Positions 8,941-61,047 of a DNA stretch of 64,000 bases are shown piece after piece (position 1 is the first letter of the stretch; each line of letters starts with the position of its first letter). Location of the stretch: contig JAFIGT010000001.1 in NCBI GenBank assembly GCA_017849585.1, forward strand, positions 1-64,000, given 5' to 3'. The position numbers and the translations under genes were made by a program. The DNA comes from Verrucomicrobium sp. Its GTDB lineage: Bacteria; Verrucomicrobiota; Verrucomicrobiia; Methylacidiphilales; UBA1321. The notes beneath the pieces are model-generated. The model was given only the letters and a program-made list of their open reading frames with translations, searched no databases and was not told the DNA's origin.

Positions 8941-8948
8941 CTTGTCGA

Positions 8949-9015
8949 ACTCAAATCTCAAAAGTCAAACCTCAAAGCTTTTGTGTAAGCTCTGACATTT
9001 GGCTTCTGACTCTTG
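8949..9015. repeat. GTCAAAA-type imperfect inverted repeat in the tRNA spacer
   Basis: The left part (8949-8978) is a series of CTCAAA / GTCAAA units. The right part (8990-9015) is a degenerate inverted counterpart. It belongs to the same sequence family as the repeats before tsaD (58267) and at 48723. Confidence 0.45.
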
Positions 9016-9040
9016 CGCTCGGCCGTTTTGGCGGCCGCCG

Positions 9041-42544: not shown

Positions 42545-42590
42545 ATTTAAGTCAAACTTCCAAAGTTAAAGGTCAAAACGAAAGGCCGGA
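42545..42590. repeat. GTCAAAA-type repeat between aroA and cmk
   Basis: Short units of gtcaaac / gttaaag / gtcaaaacg, ending cgaaaggc, the same pattern as at 48723. No partner arm is clear here. Confidence 0.4.
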
Positions 42591-46545: not shown

Positions 46546-46998
46546 TTATTTCATCTGATCCAGATCGCGAATGTAGGAGTAAGGCCCGCCCGGCTTGTAC
46601 CCGGTTTGCCCCAGCACCTTGCCATCGCCATCGACGATGATAATCGTGGGATAGCCGCGAATCTTGAATTTCTTCGCCAGCTCCGCATTCTGCTTTTTCA
46701 CCTCGTCGGTCTGTGCCTTGCCACGCGGAAAATCGAGCTCCACCAACACGAGCTTATCCTTGGCATAATTACCGAAAGCCGTCGTATCGAACACCTCTTC
46801 CTTGAGTTTGATGCACCAGCCGCACCAATCCGAGCCCGTGAAATCGAGCAAGACCCGCTTGTTTTCCGCCTTGGCCTTCTTTAAAGCCGCCTCGTAATCG
46901 GTGGTCCAAACCGCCTCGGCCGACCAGCCCGCTGCCACCGTGAAAAAGAATACCGCCGCAACCACCGTCATCAACCGACCCATTGATACTTGGAACAT
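46546..46998 (-). CDS. Secreted thioredoxin-like protein, copy 2
   Basis: 150 residues from ATG 46998, which leaves AGGG at six bases; ATG 47004 would add MF. Signal peptide about 1-28 (VVAAVFFFTVAAGWSAEA). Same fold as the gene 22 bp downstream: LLDFTGSDWCGWCIKLKEEVFDTTAFGNYAKDKLVLVELDFPRGKAQTDEVKKQNAELAKKFKIRGYPTIIIVDGDGKVLGQTGY. The two are tandem duplicates sharing one transcript, with similar CGWC sites. The first gene of the pair lies 70 bp after tRNA-Leu. Confidence 0.88.
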   Translation of the reverse strand: MFQVSMGRLMTVVAAVFFFTVAAGWSAEAVWTTDYEAALKKAKAENKRVLLDFTGSDWCGWCIKLKEEVFDTTAFGNYAKDKLVLVELDFPRGKAQTDEVKKQNAELAKKFKIRGYPTIIIVDGDGKVLGQTGYKPGGPYSYIRDLDQMK

Positions 46999-47070
46999 GA
47001 ACATCCCTGGTTAAGGTTTGAACTGACTCATCCCCAAAATAATCCCGAACGCCTGACGGTCAAGTCAGAG

Positions 47071-47214: not shown

Positions 47215-47331
47215 AGTTTTCAGTTCGAAGTTTTCGGTTTTCAGTGCTTTCCTGTCGCAACCGGATCAGCTTGGCGTAGAATGGTAGCCACGGCCCACCG
47301 ACTGAAAACCGAAAACGTCGAACTGAAAACT
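47215..47331. repeat. GTTTTC-type inverted repeat upstream of rsmI
   Basis: Left arm 47215-47245 and right arm 47301-47331 (31 bp each) match as an inverted pair except one position, with a 55-bp centre. Each arm is built from GTTTTC(A/G)G units. It ends 17 bp before rsmI. Confidence 0.75.
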
Positions 47332-47348
47332 TCCTCCCTCCTCTTCCC

Positions 47349-48110
47349 ATGTCCAAACTCTACGTCGTCGCCACCCCCATCGGTAATCTCGAAGACATCA
47401 CCCTGCGCGCCCTCCGCGTTCTGAAAGAAGTCGACCTCATCGCCGCCGAGGACACCCGCCATTCCGGCCTCCTCCTCCAGCACTTCGAAATCCGCAAACC
47501 ACTCGTCAGCTATCACCAGTTCAACGAAGCCAAGCGCACCGCCGAATTCCTCCAAGACCTGCAAGCCGGCAAGCAAATCGCCCTCGTCAGCGACGCGGGC
47601 ATGCCCGGCGTCAGCGATCCCGGAGAACGCCTCATCCGCGCCTGCGTCACCTCCAACATCACCGTTGAAATCATCCCCGGCCCCTCCGCCGTGCTGCAGG
47701 CCCTCGTCGGCGCGGGCTTCCCGATGACTCCGTTTCACTTCGGCGGCTTTCTCCCGGTGAAAAGCGGTGGCCGCCGCCGCGAACTCGCCGCCGCACCCTC
47801 GCGCGGCTGCACCTCCATCTACTTCGAATCCCCCCACCGCCTCATCCGCGCGCTGGAAGATGCCGTCGCGGAAATCCCGACCGCTACCTGCTGTGTAGCC
47901 CGCGAGTTGACAAAAAAGTTCGAGGAATTCAAGCGTGGCACCCCCGCCGAACTCCTGGCCTATTACCAAGCCAATAAACCGCGCGGCGAGATTTGCTTTG
48001 TCGTCGCCGGGCTCGACAAGAAAGCCACCAAGGCTGCCGTCGAAGAATTCTCCAAACGCGAAGAACCCGAAATCTCCGCTGAAGCCGACGCCCCCTACGA
48101 AGGGGAATAG
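47349..48110 (+). CDS. rsmI: 16S rRNA 2'-O-ribose C1402 methyltransferase
   Basis: 253 residues. SAM-binding tetrapyrrole-methylase fold: LYVVATPIGNLEDITLRALRVLKEVDLIAAEDTRHSGLLL at the start, SDAGMPGVSDPGERLI and PGPSAVLQALVGAGFPMTPFHFGGFLP after. These are the diagnostic RsmI blocks. It methylates the 2'-OH of C1402 in 16S rRNA, aiding decoding. It stands alone, with a repeat-bearing gap on each side: the GTTTTC-type inverted repeat upstream and the 100-bp compound repeat immediately downstream. Confidence 0.96.
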   Translation: MSKLYVVATPIGNLEDITLRALRVLKEVDLIAAEDTRHSGLLLQHFEIRKPLVSYHQFNEAKRTAEFLQDLQAGKQIALVSDAGMPGVSDPGERLIRACVTSNITVEIIPGPSAVLQALVGAGFPMTPFHFGGFLPVKSGGRRRELAAAPSRGCTSIYFESPHRLIRALEDAVAEIPTATCCVARELTKKFEEFKRGTPAELLAYYQANKPRGEICFVVAGLDKKATKAAVEEFSKREEPEISAEADAPYEGE

Positions 48111-48215
48111 CCAGCGTGACGCTGGACCCGGTAGCTGATTTGCTCCGCAAATCGCTTCATGACATTCTTGCCACACACCGTCATCCCGAGTGAAGTCGAG
48201 GGATCGGGCAAGGGG
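48111..48215. repeat. ~100-bp compound inverted repeat, left arm
   Basis: Contains a perfect palindrome (48111-48125, ccagcgt-g-acgctgg), a GATTTGC-tcc-GCAAATC hairpin (48137-48153) and a 'gtcatcccgag' segment, in that order. The reverse complement of 48866-48970 matches it closely over about 90 bp. Confidence 0.8.
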
Positions 48216-48273
48216 GCAGAGGTGTTTTCTTATTGCGAAAACTCAATGACTCGAGGAGCCACCGCAACGCAGA

Positions 48274-48717
48274 CTACAACTGCGCGCCGACTTCCAGCTT
48301 CAGCGCCTTGAGCGCGAGGAAAATGTCCTTCAGGAAGAACACGAGCGACACGACGAGGCATGTTAGGCTCGAACCGAAAAGCGTGATCACAATCGGATTA
48401 ATCTCCCACTTCAACGCATTCACGCCGAAGAGCGCCATGATCAGCAGCGCTACAAAGAAAATGCTCAGCACGGAGAAAATCACCGCCCACCGCAAGTCCT
48501 CCGAGCGAAGGTAAATGATCTGCAATTGCACCCGCGCCGATTCGTCCAGCTTTCCCGCCGCACGGCTCTTCTCCACTTCCGCCGAGAGAATGCGTGCCCG
48601 GTCAATCACGCGACCCAGCCGGTTCGTCATCGAGAGCAAAAGCAATCCCACACCCGAGATCAACGTGACCGGACCGATGGACGCTTGCAGGACAGGAGTC
48701 AGTTCGAGGGCTTGCAT
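48274..48717 (-). CDS. DUF2721 family membrane protein
   Basis: 147 residues. Blocks: LQASIGPVTLISGVGLLLLSMTNRLGRVIDRARILSAEV (membrane segment, then the NRLGRVIDRAR helix), QIIYLRSEDLRWAVIFSVLSIFFVALLIMALF and NPIVITLFGSSLTCLVVSLVFFLKDIF: three helices in all. These are the hallmarks of DUF2721. The function is unknown; members are widely distributed inner-membrane proteins. The gene is bracketed by a near-identical inverted repeat of about 100 bp (48111-48215 and 48866-48970), which is not a normal gene setting. Confidence 0.85.
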   Translation of the reverse strand: MQALELTPVLQASIGPVTLISGVGLLLLSMTNRLGRVIDRARILSAEVEKSRAAGKLDESARVQLQIIYLRSEDLRWAVIFSVLSIFFVALLIMALFGVNALKWEINPIVITLFGSSLTCLVVSLVFFLKDIFLALKALKLEVGAQL

Positions 48718-48722
48718 GGGGT

Positions 48723-48760
48723 TAAGTCAAAAGTTAGAAGTCAAAACTCAAAACGAAAGT
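48723..48760. repeat. GTCAAAA-type repeat (single arm)
   Basis: gtcaaaagttag / aagtcaaaactcaaaacgaaag just upstream of the DUF2721 start. Same units as at 58267 and 42545. Confidence 0.5.
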
Positions 48761-48802
48761 CTTTTTGACCATCTCAGGCTAGTACAATACGTCTCTGCCT
48801 TG

Positions 48803-48830
48803 TAGGGCGGTTCTGTGAACCGCCCTACAA
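48803..48830. repeat. Perfect hairpin (gtagggcggttc / gaaccgccctac)
   Basis: A 12-bp perfect stem around a TGT loop in the gap between the DUF2721 start and the right repeat arm. Confidence 0.55.
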
Positions 48831-48865
48831 ATAATCTGCCATCACTATCGCGATAGCCGACGCCT

Positions 48866-48970
48866 TTCGCACGCACGATTCTGTATCCGCTCAGGATGAC
48901 AGAGTGTGAAAGCGAATGTCTTTCGCGATTTGCATAGCAAATCAGCTCATGGGTGCAGCGTCACGCTGCA
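48866..48970. repeat. ~100-bp compound inverted repeat, right arm
   Basis: Order (plus strand): 'ctcaggatgac' segment, GATTTGC-ata-GCAAATC hairpin (48927-48943), perfect palindrome tgcagcgt-c-acgctgca (48954-48970). It is the inverted counterpart of 48111-48215. Confidence 0.8.
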
Positions 48971-48971
48971 C

Positions 48972-49006
48972 AAAAAAAGCCCGGCATTGCTGCCGGGCTT
49001 TTTTGT
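48972..49006. terminator. Bidirectional terminator after sdhB
   Basis: AAAAAAAGCCCGGCA-ttgc-TGCCGGGCTTTTTT: a 9-bp GC stem with A/T runs on both sides. It ends the sdhCAB transcript. Confidence 0.92.
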
Positions 49007-49023
49007 AAAGAAACGACCGAGCT

Positions 49024-49821
49024 TTAGGCTCCGCCGACGGTGGCCTTCGGCTCAGCAGCCGCGCCCTTGAGCATGGCCCAAGCGTAATCGCGGTTGAGTT
49101 GAGCGATGAAGGTAACCGGGATGCCCTTCGGGCAAACCGCTTCGCACGAGTTGGTGTTCGTGCAAGCGCCGAAGCCTTCCTTGTCCATCGCTTCGACCAT
49201 CTTGAGCACGCGGCGATCTTTTTCCGCCTTGCCTTGCGGCAGGAGGTTGAGCTGCGAGGCCTTCGCCGAGACGAAGAGCAGTGCCGAGGAATTCTTACAA
49301 GCCGCGACACACGCGCCGCAACCGATGCAGGCCGCCGCATCCATCGCCAGATCCGCAATCTCCTTGGAGATCGGGAGGGCGTTGGCGTCGGGCGTGCCAC
49401 CGGTGTTGACGGAGACGAAGCCGCCAGCCTGGATGATGCGGTCAAACGCGCTGCGGTCGACGACACAATCCTTGATGACCGGGAATGCCGTCGAACGCCA
49501 CGGTTCGATCGTGATCGTCTGCCCATCCTTGAAGATGCGCATGTGGGTCTGGCAGATGGTCACCTGGCTGTCCGGGCCGTGGGGAATGCCGTTGACGTTG
49601 AGCGAGCACATGCCGCAAATGCCTTCGCGACAGTCGTGGTCGAACGCCACCGGTTCTTCACCCTTGGCATAGAGCCGTTCGTTGAGTTGATCGAGCATCT
49701 CGAGGAACGACATGTCGGGGCTGATGCCGTCGAGCTTGTACTCGACGAGCTTGCCGGGGGTCTTGGCGTTTTTCTGGCGCCAGATGCGGATATTGAAGGT
49801 CATGGAATTTGAGGTGCTCAT
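49024..49821 (-). CDS. sdhB: Succinate dehydrogenase/fumarate reductase iron-sulfur subunit
   Basis: 265 residues from ATG 49821 ([16 protein letters not shown]); its start overlaps the sdhA stop by one base. [2Fe-2S] ligands: [15 protein letters not shown] and the later CQTHMR; the [4Fe-4S] and [3Fe-4S] clusters use [18 protein letters not shown] and [11 protein letters not shown]. It passes electrons from the flavin of SdhA to the membrane quinone site. Third gene of sdhCAB on the minus strand. Length and order fit the b558-type enzyme (Bacillus and Bacteroidetes-like), not the four-subunit E. coli type. Confidence 0.97.
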
Positions 49822-51737
49822 TATTTGTAGCTCCGGGTGGACATGTGGACTTCTTCGTAGACGAGCGGCTCTTTGTGAAGAACCGGGGCCTGGCCGACGC
49901 CTTTGAATTCCCAGGCGGCGACATACGCGAAGTTTTCGTCGTCGCGTTTGGCTTCGCCGTCGGGCATTTGGTATTCCTCGCGGAAGTGACCGCCGCACGA
50001 CTCCTTGCGCTCGAGGGCGTCAAGGGTGAGCAGTTCGGCAAATTCCAGGAAGTCCGCCACGCGGCCCGCGCGTTCGAGGGCGTTGTTGAGGTCTTCCTTG
50101 TCGCCGAGGACGTTGAGGTTCTTCCAGAATTCCTCGCGGATCTGCGGGATCTTGGCGAGGGCTTCCTTGAGGCCCTTCTCGTTGCGGCCCATGCCGACGT
50201 TTTCCCACATCAGGTGGCCGAGTTCGTGGTGGAACGAGTTCGGAGAGCGCTTGCCCTTGATCGACATCAGCTTGTTCAGGCGGTCATGGACTTCCTGTTC
50301 GGCCTTGACGAATTCCGGATGATCGGTCGACGGCGCCTTTTCCTTCTGCTGGGCGAGGTAATTGCCGATGGTGTAGGGCAGGACAAAGTAACCGTCCGCC
50401 AAACCCTGCATCAGCGCGCTCGCGCCGAGGCGGTTCGCACCGTGATCGGAGAAGTTCGCTTCACCGATGACGAAGAGACCGGGCAGATTGCTCATCAGGT
50501 TGTAATCGACCCACAGGCCGCCCATCGTGTAGTGGAGCGCGGGATAAATGCGCATCGGCTGCTCGTAGGCGTTTTCGCCGGTGATCTTCTCGTACATCTG
50601 GAAGAGATTGCCGTAACGGTCCTCGATCGTCTTGCGACCAAGACGCTTGATCGCGTCGGCGAAGTCGAGGTAAACACCGCGGCCGCCGGGGCCCACGCCA
50701 CGACCGTCATCGCACGCTTCCTTGGCCGAGCGGGAGGAAATATCGCGCGGGGCGAGATTGCCGAAGCTCGGGTACTTGCGCTCGAGATAATAATCGCGGG
50801 CGTCTTCCGGAATGTCGGAAGGCTTCTTGCCGCAATCTTCCTTGCGCTTCGGAACCCAGACGCGGCCGTCATTACGGAGCGATTCCGACATGAGCGTCAG
50901 CTTCGACTGGTGATCGCCGTGCACCGGGATACAAGTCGGGTGGATCTGCGTGTAGCACGGGTTGGCGAAGTACGCCCCCTTGCGGGCTGCGCGCCAAGCG
51001 GCCGTCACGTTGCACGCTTGCGCGTTGGTGGAGAGATAATAGACGTTCGAGTAACCACCCGTGCCGAGCACGACCGCATCCGCGCTGTGGCGGGTGATCT
51101 TGCCGGTGACGAGGTCGCGCACGATGATGCCCTTGGCCTGGCCGTTGACGACAACGAGGTCGAGCATTTCGCTGCGATTGTACATCTTCACCTTGCCGAG
51201 GCCGATCTGGCGCGAAAGCGCGGAATACGCCCCGAGCAGAAGCTGCTGCCCCGTCTGGCCGCGCGCGTAGAACGTACGGGAAACCTGCGCGCCACCGAAC
51301 GAACGGTTGGCCAGCGTTCCACCGTATTCGCGAGCAAAGGGAACACCCTGCGCGACACACTGGTCGATGATCTCGGCGCTGACCTGCGCGAGACGGTACA
51401 CATTGGCCTCGCGGGCGCGGAAATCGCCGCCCTTGATCGTGTCATAGAACAAACGGTACACGCTGTCGCCGTCATTCTGGTAGTTCTTCGCGGCATTGAT
51501 GCCGCCCTGCGCCGCAATCGAATGCGCGCGACGGGGGCTGTCCTGAAAACAGAAACAGCTCACATTGTAACCGAGCTCAGCAAGCGAGGCGGCGGCGGAA
51601 CCACCGGCCAGGCCGGAACCGACCACGATGACCGAATACTTACGTTTGTTCGCGGGATTGACCAACTTCATGTCGAAGCGGTGCTTGTCCCATTTCTGGG
51701 CGATCGGCCCGGAGGGAATTTTGCTATCGAGACTCAT
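49821..51737 (-). CDS. sdhA: Succinate dehydrogenase/fumarate reductase flavoprotein subunit
   Basis: 638 residues. FAD-binding [22 protein letters not shown] at about 33-54. [15 protein letters not shown] carries the covalent-flavin type His in its context; the active-site blocks are [15 protein letters not shown] and HTIHPT-like [20 protein letters not shown]. The C-terminal capping domain has [20 protein letters not shown]. It oxidises succinate to fumarate (or the reverse) on the inner-membrane face. The gene lies between sdhC, 29 bp upstream, and sdhB, which overlaps it by one base. Confidence 0.97.
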
Positions 51738-51766
51738 ATATTTATTAGGTTGTCAGTCGGTTAAAA

Positions 51767-52456
51767 TTACAGTTTCACCAAGCCCAGCAACACTGCGGCC
51801 GGAACCGCCGCCATGCCCACAAAGATGATGACCGCGAAAGCCAGCCCGAACCACTCCTGCACCTCGCGATACGCCGGATTCGTCAAGCCCATCGAGCGGA
51901 AACAGCTCGCGATACCGTGACTCAGGTGAAAACTCACCAACGCCACGCTGATGATGTAGAACGCGCTCACCCAAGGAACCTGGAAGCCCTTGATCACCAT
52001 CGCATACACATCATGACGCTCCACACCCTTGTGAATCTCCGTCAACTCCTTGAAGGACGGGTCGATCGACTGCGTGGTGAAGTGCAGCAGATGGAAAATG
52101 ATGAACGCCGCCACAATCACACCCGAAATGGCCATCGTGCGGGAAGCCAGACTCGCCCCCGGAGCCGCGTATTCCGCATACGCTTCGCTGCCGCGCGCCG
52201 CGCGGTTACGAATCGTCAACACCACGGCGCAGATGATGTGGAGCGCGGCCACCGCACCCAGACCGAGGCGGAAACCCCAGATCACTTCATCGGACGCATG
52301 CAGCATTTGCGCGTAATTGTTAAGAGCTTCCTGGCCGAGGAAAATCTGCAGATTTCCGACCATGTGAATGACGGTAAAAGCGAACAACGCCGCACCAGTC
52401 ACGCCCATGATGATCTTCAGGCCGACAGTGGAGCGGAGAAATTTAATCAATGGCAT
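51767..52456 (-). CDS. sdhC: Succinate dehydrogenase cytochrome b558 subunit
   Basis: 229 residues from ATG 52456 (MPLIKFLRSTVGLKIIMGVTGAALFAFTVIHMVGNLQIFLG). Five membrane helices; probable haem histidines are in VIHMVGN, LHIICAVV, FHLLHFT and FHLSHGI. It is the single-polypeptide anchor of the b558 class that binds two haems and a menaquinone. The start at 52456 was preferred over a longer frame because homologues begin PxxxKFL or similar. First gene of the sdhCAB operon; the A+T-rich 250 bp upstream probably holds its promoter, with TTGACA near 52493-52488 but a weak -10. Confidence 0.92.
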   Translation of the reverse strand: MPLIKFLRSTVGLKIIMGVTGAALFAFTVIHMVGNLQIFLGQEALNNYAQMLHASDEVIWGFRLGLGAVAALHIICAVVLTIRNRAARGSEAYAEYAAPGASLASRTMAISGVIVAAFIIFHLLHFTTQSIDPSFKELTEIHKGVERHDVYAMVIKGFQVPWVSAFYIISVALVSFHLSHGIASCFRSMGLTNPAYREVQEWFGLAFAVIIFVGMAAVPAAVLLGLVKL

Positions 52457-52713
52457 GGGGTCAAAATTAGTAGTTTCACTTATATTGTCAAAGCTTGAAT
52501 ACAATTATTATCAATATGAAGATTAATTAATAATAACTAATGCCCGACAGAGGGAATTTGCTAGAGCATCGAAACACTCGAATGCGATTAGCATTTTCGT
52601 CCACCCTCCTTTTAGCCAATCCACCGCCAAAACTTCGCAACCAATCGCCAGCTCTACGCCACTACAAGTTATGCTTAAGAATCCGAAGCGTTTTCCAAAC
52701 GAAAAAGCACCTA

Positions 52714-53331
52714 TCAATCCCCCAGAAACTTCGGTTCGCGCGGCGGCAAAACACAGACCGGACCCTCGTGAATGGCTTGAAATCGTGATATCCCCGCCTC
52801 TCCTCCAAGGGTAATCATGGCGATTCCGTTTTTGTAATCGACGATGGATGAGACTCCCGCTTGTGGAGCTGGCACCGGCAGCTCCGAATAATTTCGCGTG
52901 ACGGCAAAGATGGTCTCGCGCGGATCATTAATCGAAACATTGGCGAACTTGATGGCGAGATGCTCGGAGCTCAGCTCTTTCAGGGACTTGGGATGCACCC
53001 CTGCTTTGCAAAAATGATCGAGCTGGGATTCCTTGATGCCGCCGCGTTGGACAAGATAGGCAATGTATTCAAGGTTCGTCTTGGCGCCAACATCGGCAGG
53101 ATAACCGCCCTTCCCCGCGCCCGTCGTTGAGTCTTCCAATGCGATGACCATCGCCGCGGCATGGATTGTTCTCACATGCCCAAGGATCGTGAGGAGCGGT
53201 GCCAGACTAGGGGGCGGTGAATGACTGATGGAAGCACGATTCAGCAAAAACAGCACGATAACTCCGGCGAGCACCCAGCGCAACAGAATGCTTCCTCCAC
53301 TGTTACTCCAAAGCAATTGCTTGAGCGTCAC
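52714..53331 (-). CDS. Hypothetical membrane-anchored protein with pseudopilin-like soluble part
   Basis: 205 residues. One N-terminal helix (about 17-33: ILLRWVLAGVIVLFLLN) and a soluble domain. MVIALEDSTTGAGKGGYPADVGAKTNLEYIAYLVQRGGIKESQLDHFCKAGV and FANVSINDPRETIFAVTRNYSEL resemble the helix-then-loops layout of verrucomicrobial prepilin-like proteins, but the GFTLxE cleavage motif is absent. The last block reads AMITLGGEAGISRFQAIHEGPVCVLPPREPKF. It is the third gene after folC and the HAD phosphatase on the same strand (15-bp gap), without a functional link I can see. Confidence 0.65.
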   Translation of the reverse strand: MTLKQLLWSNSGGSILLRWVLAGVIVLFLLNRASISHSPPPSLAPLLTILGHVRTIHAAAMVIALEDSTTGAGKGGYPADVGAKTNLEYIAYLVQRGGIKESQLDHFCKAGVHPKSLKELSSEHLAIKFANVSINDPRETIFAVTRNYSELPVPAPQAGVSSIVDYKNGIAMITLGGEAGISRFQAIHEGPVCVLPPREPKFLGD

Positions 53332-53346
53332 CCCGGTTCCTTCCTC

Positions 53347-54024
53347 CTATATACGAAACAACTCCAGCACCGCGCGCAAATCCTGCTTGGGCCGCTCGAC
53401 GAGGAGCGAATGCCAGCCCGCTTGCTGCGGTGCCCAATAATCATTCAGCGGATCATCCCCCACCATCAACGCCTCGTGCGGGTCCAGTCCCAGCTTCGCC
53501 AACGCCGCCGCGTACAGTTTCGGACTCGGCTTCTCCGCGCCATGCTCGCCGCTGATCAACACCGCCTCGAAAAACGGCGCCAGCTCCAACCCCTCCAGCA
53601 GCGGCCGCAACCGCCAATCCCAATTCGACAACACCGCGAGCCGCAGCCCCCGCCCGCGCAACGTCTCCAGCACCGTCACCACCTCGGGATAGACGCGCCA
53701 CAGTTCGGGCCGCGCATAGACGTGATAAAGCTCCTCGAAATAATGATCGAACGGAAAACTCTCTGGCCGCTCCACCACGATCAACGTATCCTCCACCACC
53801 AACCGCCACCACGCCCGCTCATCACCGTCGGTGGCGACTTCCTCATCAGGGCGCGGACGCCGCCGTTTGAACGCCGCCTTGAATCCGTCGCTCAAGACCT
53901 GCGCTTCCCAGTGTTGACCGTAATGCCGCGCGATCTCCGCATACGTCTCGCCAATGGACCGCGCGGGCCGCAGCAACGTTCCGCCCGCATCAAAAAAAAC
54001 CGCTTTGATTTTAGATGCAGGCAT
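53347..54024 (-). CDS. HAD superfamily hydrolase
   Basis: 225 residues. Motif I is AVFFDAGGTLL (nucleophile Asp; the D-x-G-G-T variant is common in REG-2/HAD-IA members), motif II is LAVLSNWD, motif III the Lys of HGAEKPSPKLY, and motif IV MVGDDPLNDYWAPQQAGWHSLLV. The cap is helical (SDGFKAAFKRRRPRPDEEVA). It is a phosphatase on a small metabolite; the substrate is unknown. It starts 5 bp after the folC stop and probably shares its transcript. Confidence 0.88.
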   Translation of the reverse strand: MPASKIKAVFFDAGGTLLRPARSIGETYAEIARHYGQHWEAQVLSDGFKAAFKRRRPRPDEEVATDGDERAWWRLVVEDTLIVVERPESFPFDHYFEELYHVYARPELWRVYPEVVTVLETLRGRGLRLAVLSNWDWRLRPLLEGLELAPFFEAVLISGEHGAEKPSPKLYAAALAKLGLDPHEALMVGDDPLNDYWAPQQAGWHSLLVERPKQDLRAVLELFRI

Positions 54025-54029
54025 AATCG

Positions 54030-55349
54030 TTACGACTTCGCCACCAACCGCTCATTCAGCGCTAGTTGATGCGAGCGCCCCGAGCGCAACGCCAGCACCT
54101 CGCCGACCAGAAACAGCGAGCCGGTCAGCAGCGTCGGTCCGTACTCAAACTCCTGCTCCAGCTCCGGCCAGATTTCCGCCAGCGTGGACGAGACCCGCAC
54201 CGGCACGTCACCGCACAGCGGAACCAACTTCGCCGGATCGAGCGCGCGCTCATTTTGAATCGTCACCAGCGTCACCCGCTCCGCCAGCGCCAGCAGCTTC
54301 GGAAACATCTGCTCGTATTCCTTGTCCGCCAGAAAACCGCACACGAGATGATATCGTCGCTCGCCGTAGCACGCGCGCCACGTCGCCAGCAAACGCTCCA
54401 GCGCCGCCGGATTATGCGCCCCGTCAATCACGCACGGTGGCTCCTGTCGCAACACCTCGAACCGCCCCGGCCACGAGACATGACTGAGCCCGCCCCGGAT
54501 CGCCTCCTCAAGGGTAGGCGAAAAATTCAACTGACCGCTCAATTGCCGCACAGCCGCCACCGCGCACGCCGCGTTATCCACCTGATGCGCCCCCAGCAAT
54601 CCCAGCGTATAGTCCTCCCCATCGATCACCGCGATCTGCTTCCCGTCGCGCACCCCGCCATCGACCGCCGACACATCCAAGCCGATCAGGCACAGCGCCG
54701 ACTTCTGCCGCATCGCTGCCGACGTAATCACCTCCAGCACCGCCGGAGTCTTCACCGCCGTCACCACCGGCACGCCCGGCTTGATGATCCCCGCCTTTTC
54801 GTACGCGATCTGCTCCAGCCGCGAACCCAGATGCGCCGTATGATCCAGCGCGATATTCGTGATGATCGAAACCTCGGGCGTGACGATATTGCTCGCATCC
54901 AGCCGGCCGCCGAGCCCCGTCTCCCACACCACCCACTCCACTTCGCTCCGCGCGAAATGCCACAGCGCCAGCCCCGTGATCACCTCAAAAAACGTCGGCG
55001 CCGCGCCCCCCGGCACCTGCTCCACCTCCGCGATCAGCGGCTTCAACACACCCATCCCCTCCGCCACCGCTTCCGGCGACATCGGCACCCCGTTCACCTG
55101 AATCCGTTCGCCAAGCGTGACCAGATGTGGCGACGTATACAACCCCACCCGGAAACCCGCCGCGCGCAAGATGGCCGCGCAAAACGCCGCCGTCGACCCC
55201 TTGCCATTCGTCCCCGCGATGTGAATGAACTTCAACTTCTCCTGCGGATTCCCCAACCGCCGCGCCAGCTCCTGCATATTCTCCAAGCCCAGCTTCACGC
55301 CGAAGCGCCGCACCTGGCCGAGAAAAGAAATGGCATCGTCGTAAGTCAT
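54030..55349 (-). CDS. folC: Folylpolyglutamate/dihydrofolate synthase
   Basis: 439 residues. The Mur-ligase-type P-loop is IAGTNGKGSTAAFCAAIL at about 44-61, followed by LYTSPHLVTLGERIQVNG, GLGGRLDASNIV, ITNIALDHTAHLGSRLEQIAYEKAGIIKPGVPVVTA, and the C-terminal substrate region VIDGAHNPAALERLLATW. Together these define FolC, which adds glutamate to dihydropteroate and folates. It is first of three genes on the minus strand (folC, HAD phosphatase, pilin-like protein). Upstream, at 55361, lies an AGTTCTA-type inverted repeat. Confidence 0.96.
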   Translation of the reverse strand: MTYDDAISFLGQVRRFGVKLGLENMQELARRLGNPQEKLKFIHIAGTNGKGSTAAFCAAILRAAGFRVGLYTSPHLVTLGERIQVNGVPMSPEAVAEGMGVLKPLIAEVEQVPGGAAPTFFEVITGLALWHFARSEVEWVVWETGLGGRLDASNIVTPEVSIITNIALDHTAHLGSRLEQIAYEKAGIIKPGVPVVTAVKTPAVLEVITSAAMRQKSALCLIGLDVSAVDGGVRDGKQIAVIDGEDYTLGLLGAHQVDNAACAVAAVRQLSGQLNFSPTLEEAIRGGLSHVSWPGRFEVLRQEPPCVIDGAHNPAALERLLATWRACYGERRYHLVCGFLADKEYEQMFPKLLALAERVTLVTIQNERALDPAKLVPLCGDVPVRVSSTLAEIWPELEQEFEYGPTLLTGSLFLVGEVLALRSGRSHQLALNERLVAKS

Positions 55350-55360
55350 AAAACAAAGGC

Positions 55361-55405
55361 AAAAAGTTCTACGTACTAGGTTCTAAGTTCTACGTAGAAA
55401 GGCAA
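55361..55405. repeat. AGTTCTA-type repeat, left arm flanking the DUF2971 gene
   Basis: Units of gttctacgtactag / gttctaagttctacgtag between A-rich ends. The reverse complement of 56442-56481 aligns with it over about 38 bp with few mismatches, so the pair faces inward across 1.1 kb. Confidence 0.7.
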
Positions 55406-55627
55406 GGCGCGAATGCACCCGCCAACATCACGCTGGACCCCACAACACTACCGCCACCCGTGTGATTCCGCGCGGGACCTCCGGTGTAGCCGAAGCCGGT
55501 GGCTTCGGCGGGCGCATGCCCCCACGACAGGGGCTTTCGGCAACGCTGAGCCGCAGTAGCAGGAGCCCCCTCTAGTGAGAGGGAAAGGAAACGTGCGGTA
55601 GCACCGCGGAGCGCCGGGGTGTGTGAG

Positions 55628-56362
55628 CTATTTGGCCTCGAGCTCAGGAAAAGTCTGAATCGTGCGATCCTCGTCTATCACGAATCGGTATTCGCTCTCA
55701 TGCTCCTTGAGAAATTTGATGGCGATGTTCTGCCCAGGAAACTTTTGCCGCAGGTAGCGCTTAAGACAACTCGGATTCGAATTGTACTTCGCGCGAATAC
55801 CGACAATTACCTCTCGTAATGCTTCTGGTGGAAAAGGGACAAAGTGCATCTCTTTATGAGCAATAAGGCCATTGAGTTCGACTATAATGCGGAACTCCTT
55901 CTCATATGACCAATCGCGAGACTTGTACCCATACGTTTTCGCAAGAATCTCATTTTTTATGTAGTTCCTATTCTGAATCAACTCCTCTCGCCATTCGATC
56001 CGCTGCCGATGGCTCTGACCTTTGCAATCTTGGTAACGCACAGAACATCCGGCCGCATTCGTACACTTCGCCAACTCTCCCAAAGAGAAACCTAGCGCCA
56101 ACCCGCTAGCGCTTTCGGCATAGTGTCCCCATAGCAATGTATTATGAATACCCTCCTCTTCCGAAAAACAGAGTATTCCGTACAAAGCATTTTGTTTTTT
56201 TATTCTCTCACATCCCACATCAGGAATGACGGGATAGCAGTCAAAAAAATCATTCATCTTACCCCAAGTCGAAACCTTCAGCCGCTTCTCCTTGAGAACC
56301 TTCAAAGCAAATCTCTGCGGCAGGAACTTATGTATAATTGCCGAGTTCTTTTCATCACTCAT
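55628..56362 (-). CDS. DUF2971 family protein
   Basis: 244 residues from ATG 56362, chosen for its strong AGGAAAGGGGG site (MSDEKNSAIIHKFLPQRFALKVLKEKRLKVSTWGKMNDFFD). The middle block is LYGILCFSEEEGIHNTLLWGHYAESASGLALGFSLGEL, the DUF2971 signature; later parts hold YGYKSRDWSYEKEFRIIVEL and PPEALREVIVGIRAKYNSNPSCLKRYLRQ. DUF2971 proteins are of unknown function, often in accessory or defence-type regions. No partner is adjacent. The gene is more A+T rich than neighbours and lies between facing AGTTCTA-type repeats (55361 and 56442), like a small cassette. Confidence 0.82.
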   Translation of the reverse strand: MSDEKNSAIIHKFLPQRFALKVLKEKRLKVSTWGKMNDFFDCYPVIPDVGCERIKKQNALYGILCFSEEEGIHNTLLWGHYAESASGLALGFSLGELAKCTNAAGCSVRYQDCKGQSHRQRIEWREELIQNRNYIKNEILAKTYGYKSRDWSYEKEFRIIVELNGLIAHKEMHFVPFPPEALREVIVGIRAKYNSNPSCLKRYLRQKFPGQNIAIKFLKEHESEYRFVIDEDRTIQTFPELEAK

Positions 56363-56441
56363 AATCCCCCTTTCCTCCATATGCCCCAACTGTGGAACAG
56401 ATTTGACCTGCGTCCAACCTGAAATCGCGCTTACTCATCCC

Positions 56442-56481
56442 CTACTTCGTACCTAGAACCTACTACCTAGAACTATTTTTG
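56442..56481. repeat. AGTTCTA-type repeat, right arm
   Basis: Inverted partner of 55361-55405 (cttcgtacctagaacctact then acctagaactattttt), running straight into the hairpin at 56475-56499. Confidence 0.7.
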
Positions 56482-56499
56482 CGGCCTCGCCGCAAAAAT
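56475..56499. repeat. Perfect 11-bp hairpin
   Basis: atttttgcggc-ctc-gccgcaaaaat. The A/T runs are inside the stem, so it is not a classical terminator. Confidence 0.55.
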
Positions 56500-56763
56500 C
56501 TCGCACACCTATCTCACTTAACAAACCTAAGCCTAACGTCGCCGCCCTCTTCCTGCTAAAAAGGATTCCATGCCCGGTGTCTCTTTATCGAAAACCAGCC
56601 CACGGCCCGGAACGGCGGCGATGGGGGCAGATTGGGAGCCTGAGCGGACTGTTGACGTCTGGAGCGGTTCGGAGCGCGCGTCCTTTTTTTCGACGGAGCA
56701 CTCCGCCACTTTGTTATCGCAGGAAACTTTTACCGTGTTAGAAGTGAAAAGCCTCTCTGACCT

Positions 56764-58257
56764 ATGCCTCGGCGTTACTTACAGCTCCTGATCCTGATCG
56801 CGGGCCTTTCCCTGCTCGGAAGCCTGGCCCTCACCGTGCCCTCGCTCATCGCGGCGGACCCGACCAAGCCTGCGCCGGTGAGGACCGCTCCCGCCGCACC
56901 AGCCACCGCCCCCACGAACGCCCCGGTCGCAGCTAAGCCCGCCCCCAAGCCGCCCGAGGACACCTACCAGTACTCGTTTCTCCTCTCGAAAGTCATCGAA
57001 CTCATCCGCGAGCAATACGTCGACGAAGGCAAGGTCAGCTACAAGGACCTCACCTACGCCGCCCTGCGCGGCATGCTCTCCTCGCTCGATCCCCACAGCC
57101 AGTTCCTCGATGAAGACAGCTTTGCCGAGATGCAAAAGGACACCAAGGGCGAGTTCAGCGGACTCGGCATCGTCGTCGGCATGAAGGACGGCAACCTGGT
57201 CGTCATCGCCCCGATGGAAGACACCCCCGGCTATCGCGCGGGCATCATGCCGGGCGACCGCATTCTCAAGATCGAGGGCAAGGCGACGGAAAAGATGTCG
57301 CTGCTCAACGCCATCAAAAAACTCAAGGGCCAGCGCGGCGAGAAGGTGAAGCTCACCCTCATGCATCCGCCCAAGACGGACGACAAGGACAGCAAAGAGA
57401 AATCCGCCAAGACAAAAGACAGCAAGGACGCGAAGGAAAAAAATCTCGGTCAGGTCTACGAAGTTGAACTCACCCGCGAACTGATCAAGGTCCCCACCGT
57501 GCGCGACGCGAAGCTCCTCCCGTCCGACCTCACCGGCGACGACAAGATCGGTTACATCCGGCTCGAACAATTCGGCGAGAACACCCCGCAGGAATTCGAG
57601 GACGCCCTCGTGAAGCTCGAAGGTCAGGGCATGCAAGCGCTCGTCATCGATCTCCGCAACAACCCCGGCGGCCTGCTCGATTCCGCCGTGGAAGTCGCCG
57701 GCAAATTCCTCCCCTCCGGCCAGGTCGTCGTCTCGACGCAGGGCCGTCTCGCGGAACAGAATTACGAATACCGCGCGCGCGGCATGAAGAAGCACCCGAA
57801 CTATCCCATCGCCGTCCTCATCAACGGCTACAGCGCGAGCGGATCGGAAATCGTCGCGGGCGCACTGAAGGATCTCAACCGCGCCGTGCTCGTCGGCGAA
57901 ACCACCTTCGGCAAGGGCTCCGTGCAGAGTGTGCAGGATCTCGGCAACGGCATCGGCCTGCGCCTCACCACCGCGAAATATTACACCCCGAGCAAAAAGA
58001 CCATCCACGAAGTCGGCGTGCCGCCCGACATCTACGCGCCCATCAGCGAGACGGAAGAACGCGGCCTCATGATGGCCCGCTCGCCCCAACTCCTCTCCGC
58101 CGAGGAGAAGCAGGAAATCCGCAACCTGCGCGACTCGCAACTCGACCGCGCCATCGGCTCGCTCAAGAGCATCCGCATTTACAACCAGCGGCAACAACAA
58201 ACCGCCCCGGCCACCAACGCTCCTGCGGTCCCGCCCGCCACCATTCCGAAATCGTGA
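56764..58257 (+). CDS. ctpA: S41 carboxy-terminal processing peptidase
   Basis: 497 residues. Signal peptide about 1-30, a Pro/Ala-rich linker (38-62), an N-terminal helical part (YQYSFLLSKVIELIREQYVDEGKVSY), a PDZ domain (about 110-200: GEFSGLGIVVGMKDGNLVVIAPMEDTPGYRAGIMPGDRILKI) and the S41 core. NGYSASGSEIVAGAL holds Ser359, and GKGSVQ holds Lys384 and Gln388; their spacing (25 and 4) matches the Ser-Lys-Gln set of Tsp/Prc. A 30-residue charged insert in the PDZ region (DDKDSKEKSAKTKDSKDAKEKN) is unusual. It should trim or degrade exported proteins from their C-terminus. No obvious operon; tsaD follows about 150 bp later. Confidence 0.94.
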   Translation: MPRRYLQLLILIAGLSLLGSLALTVPSLIAADPTKPAPVRTAPAAPATAPTNAPVAAKPAPKPPEDTYQYSFLLSKVIELIREQYVDEGKVSYKDLTYAALRGMLSSLDPHSQFLDEDSFAEMQKDTKGEFSGLGIVVGMKDGNLVVIAPMEDTPGYRAGIMPGDRILKIEGKATEKMSLLNAIKKLKGQRGEKVKLTLMHPPKTDDKDSKEKSAKTKDSKDAKEKNLGQVYEVELTRELIKVPTVRDAKLLPSDLTGDDKIGYIRLEQFGENTPQEFEDALVKLEGQGMQALVIDLRNNPGGLLDSAVEVAGKFLPSGQVVVSTQGRLAEQNYEYRARGMKKHPNYPIAVLINGYSASGSEIVAGALKDLNRAVLVGETTFGKGSVQSVQDLGNGIGLRLTTAKYYTPSKKTIHEVGVPPDIYAPISETEERGLMMARSPQLLSAEEKQEIRNLRDSQLDRAIGSLKSIRIYNQRQQQTAPATNAPAVPPATIPKS

Positions 58258-58266
58258 TCGCACATG

Positions 58267-58402
58267 AAAGTCAAAACTCAAAGGTCAAAAGTCAAAGCGA
58301 CAGCGCAAAAGTTAAAAGCGCTGAAGCTCGGGACATTGACCAGCGTGCAGGACATGGCCGAATCCGAATTTTTGACTTTTGACCTCTAAACTTTTGACTT
58401 TC
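58267..58402. repeat. GTCAAAA-type inverted repeat between ctpA and tsaD
   Basis: Left arm 58267-58297 (gtcaaaactcaaaggtcaaa...) and right arm 58368-58402 (tttttgacttttgacctct...) face each other around 70 bp. The right arm ends just before tsaD. Confidence 0.75.
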
Positions 58403-58409
58403 CCACCCC

Positions 58410-59486
58410 ATGCGCGTTCTTGGTATTGAAACCTCCTGCGACGAAACCGCCGTCTCTGTGGTCGAAGCGCAGATCGGCAAGACCGGCATTCTCGCGAACG
58501 TCGTCAGCTCCCAGATCCGCCTGCACGAACAATTCGGCGGCATCGTTCCCGAAGTCGCCACACGCGAACACCTCCGCAATCTCCCGCAACTCGTCCCCGG
58601 TCTCCTCACCCAATCCCGCATCCGGCTCGACGACCTCGACGCCATCGCCGTCACACAAGGGCCCGGCCTCGCCACTTCGCTACTCATCGGCTACTCCTAC
58701 GCGCGCGCCCTCGGCCTCGCGGCAGACATCCCCGTCTGCGGCGTGAACCATCTCGAAGGCCACCTCTTCTCCCCGTTCCTCGCGCTCTCGCAGAAAGTCG
58801 AATTCCCCTTCATCGGCCTCATCGTCAGCGGCGGCCACACGCTGCTCGTCCACGCGAAGGGGTGGAATCATTATGAGAAACTCGGCGGCACCGTCGATGA
58901 CGCCGCCGGAGAGGCCTTCGACAAAGTCGCGCGGCTCATGGATATTTCCTATCCCGGCGGCCCCAAGATCGAAAAGCTCGCCCGCACCGGCAATGCCGAA
59001 GCCTACGCCTTCCCGCGTTCGTTTCCGCAAAAGGACAACTTCAATTTCAGCTTCAGCGGACTCAAAACCTCCGTGCGCTATTTCTTCGAGAAGAACCCGC
59101 AAGCCCACGATGACAACGCGTGGAAAGCCGATCTCTGCGCCTCGTTCCAAAGCGCCGTCGTCGATGTGCTCGCCCGTAAGGCCGGCAACGCCCTCGCCGC
59201 CACCGGCTGCAAACGGCTCGTCGCCTCCGGCGGCGTCCTCTGCAACAACGCGCTGCGCGTTGCCCTCGCGCAAGCCTGTGCCGAACAAGGAGCCAACCTC
59301 CTCGTTGCCGATCCGAAACTCTGCACCGACAACGCCGCCATGATCGCCGCCACCGCCGCCGAAAAAATGGCCGCCGGAATTCCCCTCACCCTCGCCACCG
59401 ACATCGATCCCAACCTGAGCCTCTTCAAACGCCCCGGCAGCACCGCCGCCGTGAAAAACAAAGAGAAACTCATGCGCCAACGCTGA
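58410..59486 (+). CDS. tsaD: tRNA N6-adenosine threonylcarbamoyltransferase TsaD
   Basis: 358 residues. ASKHA fold: VLGIETSCDETAVSVVE at the start, AVTQGPGLATSLLIGYSYARALG, the metal-site NHLEGHLFSPFL, and LIVSGGHTLLVHAKG; C-terminal VASGGVLCNNALRVALAQ and CTDNAAMIAATAAEKM. It joins threonylcarbamoyl-AMP to A37 of tRNAs that read ANN codons, an essential step in the cytosol. The start ATG 58410 matches homologues (MRVLGIETSCDET). It is separated from ctpA by a GTCAAAA-type inverted repeat. Confidence 0.97.
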   Translation: MRVLGIETSCDETAVSVVEAQIGKTGILANVVSSQIRLHEQFGGIVPEVATREHLRNLPQLVPGLLTQSRIRLDDLDAIAVTQGPGLATSLLIGYSYARALGLAADIPVCGVNHLEGHLFSPFLALSQKVEFPFIGLIVSGGHTLLVHAKGWNHYEKLGGTVDDAAGEAFDKVARLMDISYPGGPKIEKLARTGNAEAYAFPRSFPQKDNFNFSFSGLKTSVRYFFEKNPQAHDDNAWKADLCASFQSAVVDVLARKAGNALAATGCKRLVASGGVLCNNALRVALAQACAEQGANLLVADPKLCTDNAAMIAATAAEKMAAGIPLTLATDIDPNLSLFKRPGSTAAVKNKEKLMRQR

Positions 59487-59607
59487 CACGAGACCTCGTT
59501 CAATTCTGAACTCCCCTATTAGCGCTACCGATCAGTAGCCAATCAAAATCGCGTCCCTCGTTGCGAATACCGCGCAACTTTATCTCATACCCGCCGTTTA
59601 ATAAGAC

Positions 59608-60153
59608 ATGGGAAATAAATCGCTTCTCGTGATCGGGGTTCTGGCCCTGGTGTGGGGGTTCGGGGTATCGGTGCAGGCTGGACCAAATACCGTCGACTTC
59701 TATCTGACCACGCCAGACCAATACAAGGGTCTCATGATCAACCTGGATGTCAAAGGTGTCCGTCCCGTTGAATTCAAAAGCCCCATCCCTGAGCTGGCCT
59801 TCTTCCAGATGACCACTTGGGATAAACAAAAGAACCGTCCCGGCGGCCACATCATGCTCGTCGCTCCCGCTACGGAATCGACCAACATCATGCGCAAATA
59901 CGGCGACGACATGCGTCGTGGCGGCGATGTCGACCGCATGCGCGGCCTGCTGATTCTCAGCCCCGGCGGCCCTGAAGGCCCAGCCCCTACCGACGCCCCC
60001 GCACCGCCACAAGGCCATCGCCCTCGCGGCCCGCATCGCCAGATGTGGATGATCGATTATGAAGGCCGCTGCAGCGCCATCATCGAGGCGCACAAAGCCG
60101 AAATGGAGAGAGTTCCCCAAATCGAAAAAGGTCCCGCACCCGACAATAAGTAA
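59608..60153 (+). CDS. Hypothetical secreted protein
   Basis: 181 residues, not recognised. Signal peptide about 1-23 (MGNKSLLVIGVLALVWGFGVSVQA). The mature half has strands (NTVDFYLTTPDQYKGLMINLDVKGVRPVEFKSP) and a middle with IMRKYGDDMRRGGDVDRMRGLL. A Pro/Gly/His/Arg-rich segment (about 125-150; GGPEGPAPTDAPAPPQGHRPRGPHRQ) looks disordered. It is preceded by tsaD and followed by a clear terminator (60175-60206), so it may be the last gene of that transcript. No enzymatic motif is visible. Confidence 0.7.
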   Translation: MGNKSLLVIGVLALVWGFGVSVQAGPNTVDFYLTTPDQYKGLMINLDVKGVRPVEFKSPIPELAFFQMTTWDKQKNRPGGHIMLVAPATESTNIMRKYGDDMRRGGDVDRMRGLLILSPGGPEGPAPTDAPAPPQGHRPRGPHRQMWMIDYEGRCSAIIEAHKAEMERVPQIEKGPAPDNK

Positions 60154-60174
60154 TCCGCCACGCGCACCATTTCA

Positions 60175-60206
60175 TGAACGGCAAGGGGATCGTTCCCTGC
60201 CGTTCA
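60175..60206 (+). terminator. Terminator after the secreted hypothetical gene
   Basis: TGAACGGCA-aGGG pairs with CCC-TGCCGTTCA across a short loop; TTCTTT follows. Confidence 0.75.
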
Positions 60207-60281
60207 TTCTTTGCACCCTGAAACGCCTTCATACTCGGCGCTCTCGAGAGCTTGCAGTATTTCAGCCTTTAGGTGACTGAC

Positions 60282-60929
60282 TTACTTCGCGAGAAACTCC
60301 GGCAACACGCCCTTCGCCTCGCTCACGCGATTGAAAACGAAAATCGAATATGGCACCAATCCCGCGAGCGTCTCGGCATTCGTCGCGAACGCTTGCGGAT
60401 AGGCCGCCGCACTCGAATCAGCGAGTCCCGCATTCAACACAATCCCCACAATCGGCACGCCAGAGCGTTCGATGCTTTCGATGGTGAGCAGTGTGTGATT
60501 GATCGTCCCCAGTCCCGCTCGCGCCACGATGAGCGCGGGCAGTTTCATTTCCACGGCCCAATCGCGCACCAGCTTCTTGCCATCGAGCGGCACGAGCCAG
60601 CCGCCCACTCCTTCCACCGCAAGATGTGTGAACCGCGCGCGCGCGGAATCGATGCTCGCGTTCATCGCGTCCCAATCGAACGGCATGCGATCCACCCGCG
60701 TCGCCACATGCGGCGCGACGGGTGAAGGAAAACGAATCGGATTCACTTCCGCGAGCGTGAGTTCATTGTCCGCCGCCGCGCGCAACGCCTCGGCATCTTC
60801 CGTTCCACCGCACGAGATCGGCTTGATCCCCGCCGCGTGAAATCCCCGCTGCCGCCATTGGCGCACGAGCCACGCGGAAAAGTAGGTCTTGCCGATTTCA
60901 GTGTCCGTTCCAGTGACGAATAAATGCAT
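60282..60929 (-). CDS. bioD: Dethiobiotin synthase
   Basis: 215 residues. The P-loop VTGTDTEIGKTYFSAWLVRQW is at about 5-25; later blocks are GIKPISCGGTEDAEAL and EGVGGWLVPLDGK (the DTB-loop region). It closes the ureido ring of dethiobiotin in biotin synthesis, using ATP and CO2. No other bio genes are in the window, so they lie elsewhere. The upstream side has an AGTTCTA-type repeat pair (60934-61044). Confidence 0.94.
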   Translation of the reverse strand: MHLFVTGTDTEIGKTYFSAWLVRQWRQRGFHAAGIKPISCGGTEDAEALRAAADNELTLAEVNPIRFPSPVAPHVATRVDRMPFDWDAMNASIDSARARFTHLAVEGVGGWLVPLDGKKLVRDWAVEMKLPALIVARAGLGTINHTLLTIESIERSGVPIVGIVLNAGLADSSAAAYPQAFATNAETLAGLVPYSIFVFNRVSEAKGVLPEFLAK

Positions 60930-60933
60930 GACG

Positions 60934-61044
60934 GAAGTACTAGGTATTAAGTTCTAGGTTCTAAGTAAAAGGCAAAAGGTGCGAGCGTTCCAGAAAGTAG
61001 GGAATCATCATACTTAGTACCTAGAACCTCGTACTTAGAACTTG
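60934..61044. repeat. AGTTCTA-type inverted repeat upstream of bioD
   Basis: Left arm 60934-60977 (gtactaggtattaagttctaggttctaagt...) and right arm 61011-61044 (tacttagtacctagaacctcg...) face each other around about 35 bp. Both share units with the pair at 55361/56442. Confidence 0.7.
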
Positions 61045-61047
61045 TCT

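What the first reader, a model, noticed from the sequence alone, without database searches (positions are those of the whole stretch)
47215..61044. Four families of facing inverted repeats between genes
Intergenic gaps in this stretch hold inverted repeat pairs of at least four sequence families: GTTTTC-type (47215/47301), a ~100-bp compound type (48111/48866), AGTTCTA-type (55361/56442 and 60934/61011) and GTCAAAA-type (58267/58368, with relatives at 8949, 42545, 48723). In three of them each arm is a short run of imperfect 7-9 nt units. The arm sequences differ between families but the layout (arm, centre, inverted arm) repeats. The centre is 35-75 bp in some and a whole gene in others. No transposase is near. 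This could be an undescribed element class: REP/MITE-like, structured RNA or gene cassettes.
Basis: partly seen in the sequence, partly recalled or inferred. Interest (0 to 1): 0.7.

Follow-up and report, generated by a model that had tools for sequence, protein, structure and literature searches.

The report
Heptamer-armed intergenic elements around S23 genes
Gaps between genes in this bacterium hold small elements bounded by two facing arms of imperfect seven-letter repeats, and in the bacteria examined the same kind of arms usually bracket a small orphan gene (S23) best known from inserts in ribosomal RNA, which points to a widespread, little-noticed kind of mobile element.

Summary
The facing arms are real and far above chance. 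The "compound" type is a separate REP-like palindrome. In sister species G002 the same gap may keep the element, carry another arm family on both sides with an unrelated centre, lack it, or (one case) hold it inverted.

Main finding: genes of family PF05635 (S23, the four-helix-bundle protein of 23S rRNA intervening sequences, IVS) lie between such arms: 26 of 31 in this order and 20 of 22 on plasmids of four other phyla, against 0 of 122 and 0 of 596 control genes. Both S23 genes of this genome carry arm families that also bound gene-less elements here. One plasmid pair shows a clean 428-nt insertion.

Best explanation: IVS-like mobile elements outside rRNA, with S23 or compact without it; the arms form an RNA stem, probably cut by RNase III (inferred). 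How they move is unknown. Ten literature searches did not turn up the intergenic S23-arm link.

The parts
8946..9021 (.). family C hairpin (arms 8946-8980 and 8987-9021) in the rRNA-operon spacer between two tRNA genes
   Evidence: RNA fold z -6.9
42550..42579 (-). lone family C arm just upstream of a minus-strand gene start at 42542
   Evidence: gap 697; a better array at the same place in G002
47215..47245 (+). family A left arm
   Evidence: conserved in G002
47301..47331 (-). family A right arm, 17 nt before the rsmI-like start codon at 47349
   Evidence: RNA fold of the pair z -8.2
48723..48759 (-). lone family C arm upstream of the DUF2721 gene start at 48717
   Evidence: conserved in G002
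55361..55397 (+). family B left arm
   Evidence: conserved in G002
55628..56389 (-). DUF2971 gene between the family B arms; not in the corresponding place in G002
   Evidence: G002 interior differs
56442..56478 (-). family B right arm
58265..58299 (+). family C left arm, just after the ctpA-like stop codon; replaced by other sequence in G002
58367..58401 (-). family C right arm, just before the tsaD-like start at 58410; conserved in G002
   Evidence: RNA fold of the pair z -5.5
60935..60967 (+). family B left arm; G002 has family A here
61011..61043 (-). family B right arm; G002 has family A here
   Evidence: RNA fold of the pair z -3.6
48112..48155 (+). compound (REP-like) repeat, NOT of the heptamer class
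48925..48968 (-). facing copy of the compound (REP-like) repeat, NOT of the heptamer class

Best explanation
The facing arms are the ends of small intergenic insertion elements related in layout to the S23-encoding intervening sequences (IVS) of 23S rRNA. Full form, mostly 400-510 bp: arm, S23 four-helix-bundle gene, facing arm. Compact form: arm, short unique centre, facing arm. A few carry another gene, such as DUF2971 at 55361-56478. Each arm is a few imperfect heptamers (octamers in some), and one genome uses a handful of arm words for both forms. SHOWN: arms exceed chance; they face each other and belong to the same word family; they usually sit next to genes; S23 genes are nearly always bracketed by them; orthologous gaps gain, lose, switch or invert elements between sister species; one S23 element is a clean 428-nt insertion. 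INFERRED: transcripts through an element fold into a long stem that RNase III cuts, as in rRNA IVSs, which would make insertions inside operons tolerable; compact forms are gene-less relatives moved or homogenised by the same unknown process; S23 protein takes part, perhaps with an enzyme supplied in trans.
For: S23-arm association against controls: 26 of 31 and 20 of 22 versus 0 of 122 and 0 of 596 with facing arms of score >=15 and 6-8-nt periodicity. Of 47 S23 loci with arms, the best period is 7 in 32, 8 in 13, 6 in 1, 9 in 1. Same words on S23 and gene-less elements: families B and D here, AGTCAGG, GGGAAAA and GGGAACA words in Calothrix/Nostoc plasmids. Facing layout: 34 of 44 neighbouring array pairs face each other and 29 of these 34 share a family; for family A in three congeners 23 of 26 neighbouring sites within 600 nt face each other. 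Turnover: both arms switched at 3 orthologous gaps, one inversion, several presence/absence differences. Empty site at 98.4% identity. IVS precedent: Coxiella IVS has an S23 ORF, heptameric repeats before it, terminal inverted repeats, and an RNase III site at the first repeat (passages). RNA folds of four window elements z -8.2, -5.5, -3.6, -6.9.
Against: No element in the window carries S23, and compact centres hold no S23 remnants. Only one clean empty site; a second had another-length gap at a start codon and two were not clean. Direct repeats at the element ends are not general (P 0.31). Within-locus arm similarity is not above between-locus similarity (permutation P 0.87 for A, 0.98 for B), so pairing itself shows no sign of selection. 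5 of 31 and 2 of 22 S23 loci fail the test (two of the five are cut by contig ends). No expression or RNase III data here.
Confidence: 0.6

Rival explanations
1. Paired binding sites: the heptamer arrays are bound as DNA or mRNA leaders by a regulator and control the flanking genes.
For: Arms often end a few nt before start codons; print precedents are TAACTGA arrays in Beggiatoaceae proposed as translational regulator sites (abstract and passages) and paired opposite-strand tandem 7-8-mers in Geobacter metallireducens called putative global-regulator sites (passages).
Against: Present between convergent genes (C23 44931-45071) and between tRNA genes; the word at one gap changes between sister species while the genes stay; different words around homologous S23 genes; lost or gained freely.
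Confidence: 0.2
2. Classical MITEs of a DDE-type or Y1 transposon whose terminal repeats happen to be heptameric.
For: Shared stereotyped arms, presence/absence between species, GTAAT at both ends of one insertion.
Against: 19 of 23 centres have no match outside their locus and its orthologue in 2.8 Mb; no general target duplication; words differ between genera; S23, not a transposase, is the recurrent gene. A transposase parent was not searched for beyond Y1.
Confidence: 0.1
3. No mobile element: local tandem slippage plus template switching at quasi-palindromes grows facing arms in place.
For: Imperfect tandem units; one in-place inversion; unique centres.
Against: Arms at unrelated loci share a stereotyped order of variant units and genus-specific words; S23 association; 428-nt clean insertion.
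Confidence: 0.1

Closest known systems
S23-encoding 23S rRNA intervening sequences (e.g. Coxiella burnetii IVS, PMC4990558; passages seen)
   Same: S23 ORF, terminal inverted repeats forming a stem, tandem heptamers before the ORF, about 428 nt
   Different: there inside 23S rRNA; here in intergenic gaps, many words, and mostly without the S23 gene. The 23S gene in this window matches the full model with no large insert.
TAACTGA heptamer arrays (PMC4679880; abstract and passages)
   Same: intergenic imperfect heptamer arrays, often just before start codons, patchy across phyla
   Different: described as direct repeats of one word with one inverted case; the terms S23, four helix and intervening do not occur in that text
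Geobacter metallireducens paired tandem 7-8-mer sites (PMC2700814; passages)
   Same: short tandem repeats on opposite strands at variable distance
   Different: interpreted as global-regulator sites; no S23 link in the passages seen
Cyanobacterial short tandemly repeated repetitive (STRR) heptamers (recalled; search listing only)
   Same: intergenic tandem heptamers
   Different: recalled as single arrays; facing pairing around S23 is what is seen here in cyanobacterial plasmids
DGR accessory protein Avd (PMC10053308; passages)
   Same: fold relative of PF05635
   Different: Avd works beside a reverse transcriptase; in the S23 loci fetched with annotation the neighbours were not reverse transcriptases

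Membership tests
S23-type 23S rRNA IVS | encodes S23 / PF05635 protein | tested here: inconclusive
   met by 2 elements of this genome, not by any element in the window
S23-type 23S rRNA IVS | terminal inverted repeats able to form a stem | tested here: met
S23-type 23S rRNA IVS | inserted in 23S rRNA | tested here: not met
   elements lie between genes; 23S in the window is full length without a large insert
S23-type 23S rRNA IVS | excised from RNA by RNase III | not testable with these tools
   folds only
MITE | terminal inverted repeats shared among copies | tested here: met
MITE | shared interior among dispersed copies | tested here: not met
   19 of 23 centres unmatched elsewhere in 2.8 Mb
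MITE | target-site duplication | tested here: inconclusive
   GTAAT in one clean case; not general, P 0.31 over 21 loci
MITE | transposase-bearing parent with the same ends | not tested
   only Y1_Tnp and RVT_1 counts were made
REP / BIME (compound type only) | dispersed short palindrome | tested here: met
   35 sites in 1.6 Mb, control 1
REP / BIME (compound type only) | associated Y1 (RAYT) transposase | tested here: inconclusive
   one Y1_Tnp gene in the genome, flanks not examined
TAACTGA-type heptamer arrays | forward orientation before start codons | tested here: not met
   arms face outward on both sides of gaps, also at gene ends and between tRNAs

The most novel reading that the evidence does not exclude
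S23 genes and short-repeat arms together are a cross-phylum class of mobile elements outside rRNA, of which rRNA IVSs are the special case that was noticed first. Gene-less copies with the same arms act as satellites, and many intergenic heptamer arrays reported before (cyanobacterial STRRs, TAACTGA arrays) are their arms. The S23 protein, a relative of the retroelement factor Avd, would be the mobility factor, perhaps acting on the RNase-III-excised hairpin RNA with a reverse transcriptase in trans.
Probability: 0.35. Interest if true: 0.85.

Novelty: new variant of a known kind. Interest (0 to 1): 0.72.

Why it matters
S23 proteins are a common orphan family (PF05635 found in 181 of 240 genomes of this phylum) with solved folds (2gsc, 2rld) and no known function. 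A fixed genetic context, facing tandem-repeat arms in intergenic gaps, would give the family a role, link rRNA IVSs to heptamer arrays reported separately, and make mobility and RNA processing of these elements directly testable in culturable cyanobacteria.

Tried and rejected
Rejected: (1) Four equivalent families: the compound one is a REP-like palindrome. (2) Co-varying hairpins: arms within a locus are no more alike than arms of the same family at other loci. (3) Compact elements as decayed S23 elements: a home-made S23 profile found only the two intact S23 genes in the own and G002 stretches, and none in L119-L198. (4) General target-site duplication. (5) Ordinary MITE dispersal (4 of 23 centres do have 20-55-nt matches to dispersed repeats).

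Led nowhere: strict inverted-repeat scan of the window found only one pair, so thresholds were relaxed (12 pairs, two block shuffles 5 and 2). Lag-7 scan of the window alone at a strict threshold found nothing at lag 7. The named relatives fetched by TsaD (80 loci, best 51% identity) are too distant for locus comparison. An S23 scan of viral contigs found no relative. One search used wrong gene positions for S23 loci cut by contig ends; one search replaces it. In one search the fifth fold (L296) did not span both arms (z 0.10) and is not used. Four centres of 29 were too short and two too long for the centre test. My notebook says 33 S23 loci; the right number is 31. Paper searches answered.
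Full report
WHAT IS THERE. The window is contig 33 of an unnamed 4.79-Mb, 43-contig genome, probably Verrucomicrobiota (inference from its nearest named TsaD hits, about 51% identity). Three families are built of imperfect heptamers. Read towards the nearer gene they are ACTGAAA (A), ACTTAGA/ACCTAGT (B) and ACTTTTG (C), all in an AC[TC]NNNN frame (my reading). The fourth, compound pair holds the palindrome CAGCGTGACGCTG, present 35 times at up to one mismatch in 1.6 Mb of this genome and 43 times in 1.18 Mb of G002, reversed control 1 and 1; it is REP-like and separate.

MORE THAN CHANCE. I read about 1.6 Mb of the genome. Lag-7 self-similarity gives 57 hits; the other lags from 4 to 29 that are multiples of neither 3 nor 7 give 4-14, multiples of 3 give 56-124 as expected in coding DNA. 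49 of the 57 lie outside predicted genes (genes come from a simple home-made predictor). 48 of 644 gaps up to 700 nt hold a lag-7 array at the chosen threshold, 6 after shuffling. Inverted pairs of score >=15 inside gaps: 43 real, 0 shuffled, counting short terminators too.

ANATOMY. Fourteen facing pairs with periodic arms and a centre of at least 20 nt passed one filter: median gap 147.5 nt, median distance to the flanking genes 7 and 5.5 nt; in 9 of 14 both distances are at most 17 nt. Gene orientations are 8 (- -), 3 (+ +), 2 (- +), 1 (+ -). Over this genome and G002, 44 neighbouring array pairs were found; 34 face each other, 29 of these 34 share a word family, and only 2 same-family pairs are not facing (families assigned with my own word lists). 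For family A over three whole congeneric genomes, 23 of 26 neighbouring sites within 600 nt face each other. Family A arms have a stereotyped order of variant units at unrelated loci. Words are genus-specific: family A pattern 24 sites here, 54 in G001, 43 in G002, 0 in the nine other members of the family searched; family B pattern 31, 30, 37, and 0-5 in the nine others. Centres are private: 19 of 23 tested have no match outside their own locus and orthologue in 2.8 Mb; 4 have 20-55-nt matches to dispersed repeats.

TURNOVER BETWEEN SISTER SPECIES. 197 of 712 gaps could be mapped to the G002 stretches (median flank identity 92%). Reading the gaps printed by eye: both arms switch family with an unrelated centre at three (C25 80229, A here and B in G002; C25 104254, B and A; 60930-61047 in the window, B and A). 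Three elements are present in one species only (C25 98917, C37 85143, C20 248436; the last from scores). One has a lone C arm here and a pair of a fifth word in G002 (C37 94057). One kept one arm (window 58258). One gap has a mixed pair in G002 only (C39 35398). Seven keep the family (among them 47215/47301 and 55361/56442 of the window, the latter with different contents). One of 188 compared gaps, C37 98447-98542, aligns far better inverted (81 against 43.5): arms and centre are reverse-complemented in place. Gaps with heptamers align less well than others (median 0.465, n = 30, against 0.685, n = 146).

THE S23 LINK. The switched locus C25 104254 holds an S23 (PF05635, 23S_rRNA_IVP) gene between its arms. 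The genome has two PF05635 genes, and both lie between facing heptamer arms, families B and D. I examined 31 of the 58 PF05635 matches found in this genome and 60 relatives (those cut out as loci), and 22 of the 29 plasmid records with an S23 match (the others were mostly near-duplicates of those taken). With facing arms of score >=15 and a 6-8-nt period as the test, 26 of 31 and 20 of 22 pass; control genes pass in 0 of 122 (three 49-kb plasmid stretches) and 0 of 596 (this genome and G002); without the period test the controls are 3 of 122 and 8 of 596, and plasmid S23 21 of 22. Two of the five order-level misses are cut by contig ends. The plasmid sample is not fully independent: L294 and L298 are one site at 97.4% identity and several Nostocales loci share words. 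Plasmid hosts are Cyanobacteriota, Bacteroidota (Riemerella), Gemmatimonadota and Pseudomonadota (Azospirillum). Of the 47 loci with arms the best period is 7 in 32, 8 in 13, 6 in 1, 9 in 1; most elements span 400-510 bp. Words differ widely: GGGAAAA, GTAGGGA, AGTCAGG, GAACAGG, TTTTAGC, GGTGACA, GGGATTAA and others.

S23 AND GENE-LESS FORMS BELONG TOGETHER. Families B and D bound S23 here and also gene-less elements. In three plasmid stretches without S23, facing periodic pairs with the words of the S23 elements of that clade occur (AGTCAGG, centre 182; GGGAACA/GGCAACA, centre 54; GGGGAAA, centre 46), and a named Spartobacteria contig has an AGTCAGG pair with centre 20. At C25 104254 the S23 gene is 70% identical to that of G002 over 249 nt while the flanks are 96-97%. 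G001 also has S23 at this place, with family A arms like G002.

INSERTION. Trichormus plasmid locus L294 against Nostoc linckia L315 (98.4% identical) shows a clean 428-nt insertion carrying arms and S23 in a spacer of 13 nt, with GTAAT at both ends. L290 against L316 (94.9%) shows a 506-nt gap placed at a start codon; L297/L317 and L293/L318 are not clean. S23 elements also sit inside apparent operons: between cas10 and cmr3, cas6 and cas4, and, reversed, between the two ribonucleotide reductase subunit genes. Direct repeats at the ends are not general (P 0.31).

HOW IT MAY WORK. Four window elements fold as RNA with z -8.2, -5.5, -3.6 and -6.9. The 23S rRNA IVS of Coxiella burnetii, as its authors describe it (passages), has an S23 ORF, heptameric repeats before it, terminal inverted repeats forming a 28-bp stem, and an RNase III site at the first repeat. 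I infer that intergenic elements are processed likewise when transcribed. Against a selected hairpin stands the lack of within-locus co-variation. The mobility factor is unknown: S23 is the recurrent protein; PF05635 is discussed as a relative of the DGR factor Avd (passages); the genome has two RVT_1 genes and one Y1_Tnp gene, whose relation to the elements was not examined.

NOVELTY. Tandem heptamers and S23 IVSs are in print. Ten answered searches of the open-access library showed no paper that joins intergenic S23 genes to facing heptamer arms; I saw listings for most hits and read passages of four papers. Subscription papers are largely absent from that library, so this is weak evidence of novelty. 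I rate it a new variant of a known kind.

Noticed in passing
window 48800-48830: Perfect 14-bp hairpin TTGTAGGGCGGTTC...GAACCGCCCTACAA, a second REP-like repeat; found 5 times in 1.6 Mb here and 11 in 1.18 Mb of G002 at up to 1 mismatch; a copy of this type occupies the place of the left arm at the ctpA-tsaD gap in G002.
   Followed up: partly
G000:C19:21979-22266: The only Y1_Tnp (PF01797) match of the genome, a candidate RAYT for the REP-like palindromes.
   Followed up: no
window 46077-46523 and 46546-47004: Two adjacent minus-strand ORFs with thioredoxin-like WCGWC motifs (motif read by eye, not searched).
   Followed up: no
L295, L302, L306: S23 elements sit inside CRISPR-Cas gene clusters of three cyanobacterial plasmids.
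   Followed up: no
   Followed up: no
window 58299-58330; G2C9 19189; G2C1b 18781: Family C elements share a sub-terminal ACAGC(G)-type motif next to the left arm at three loci, the only hint of shared centre sequence.
   Followed up: no
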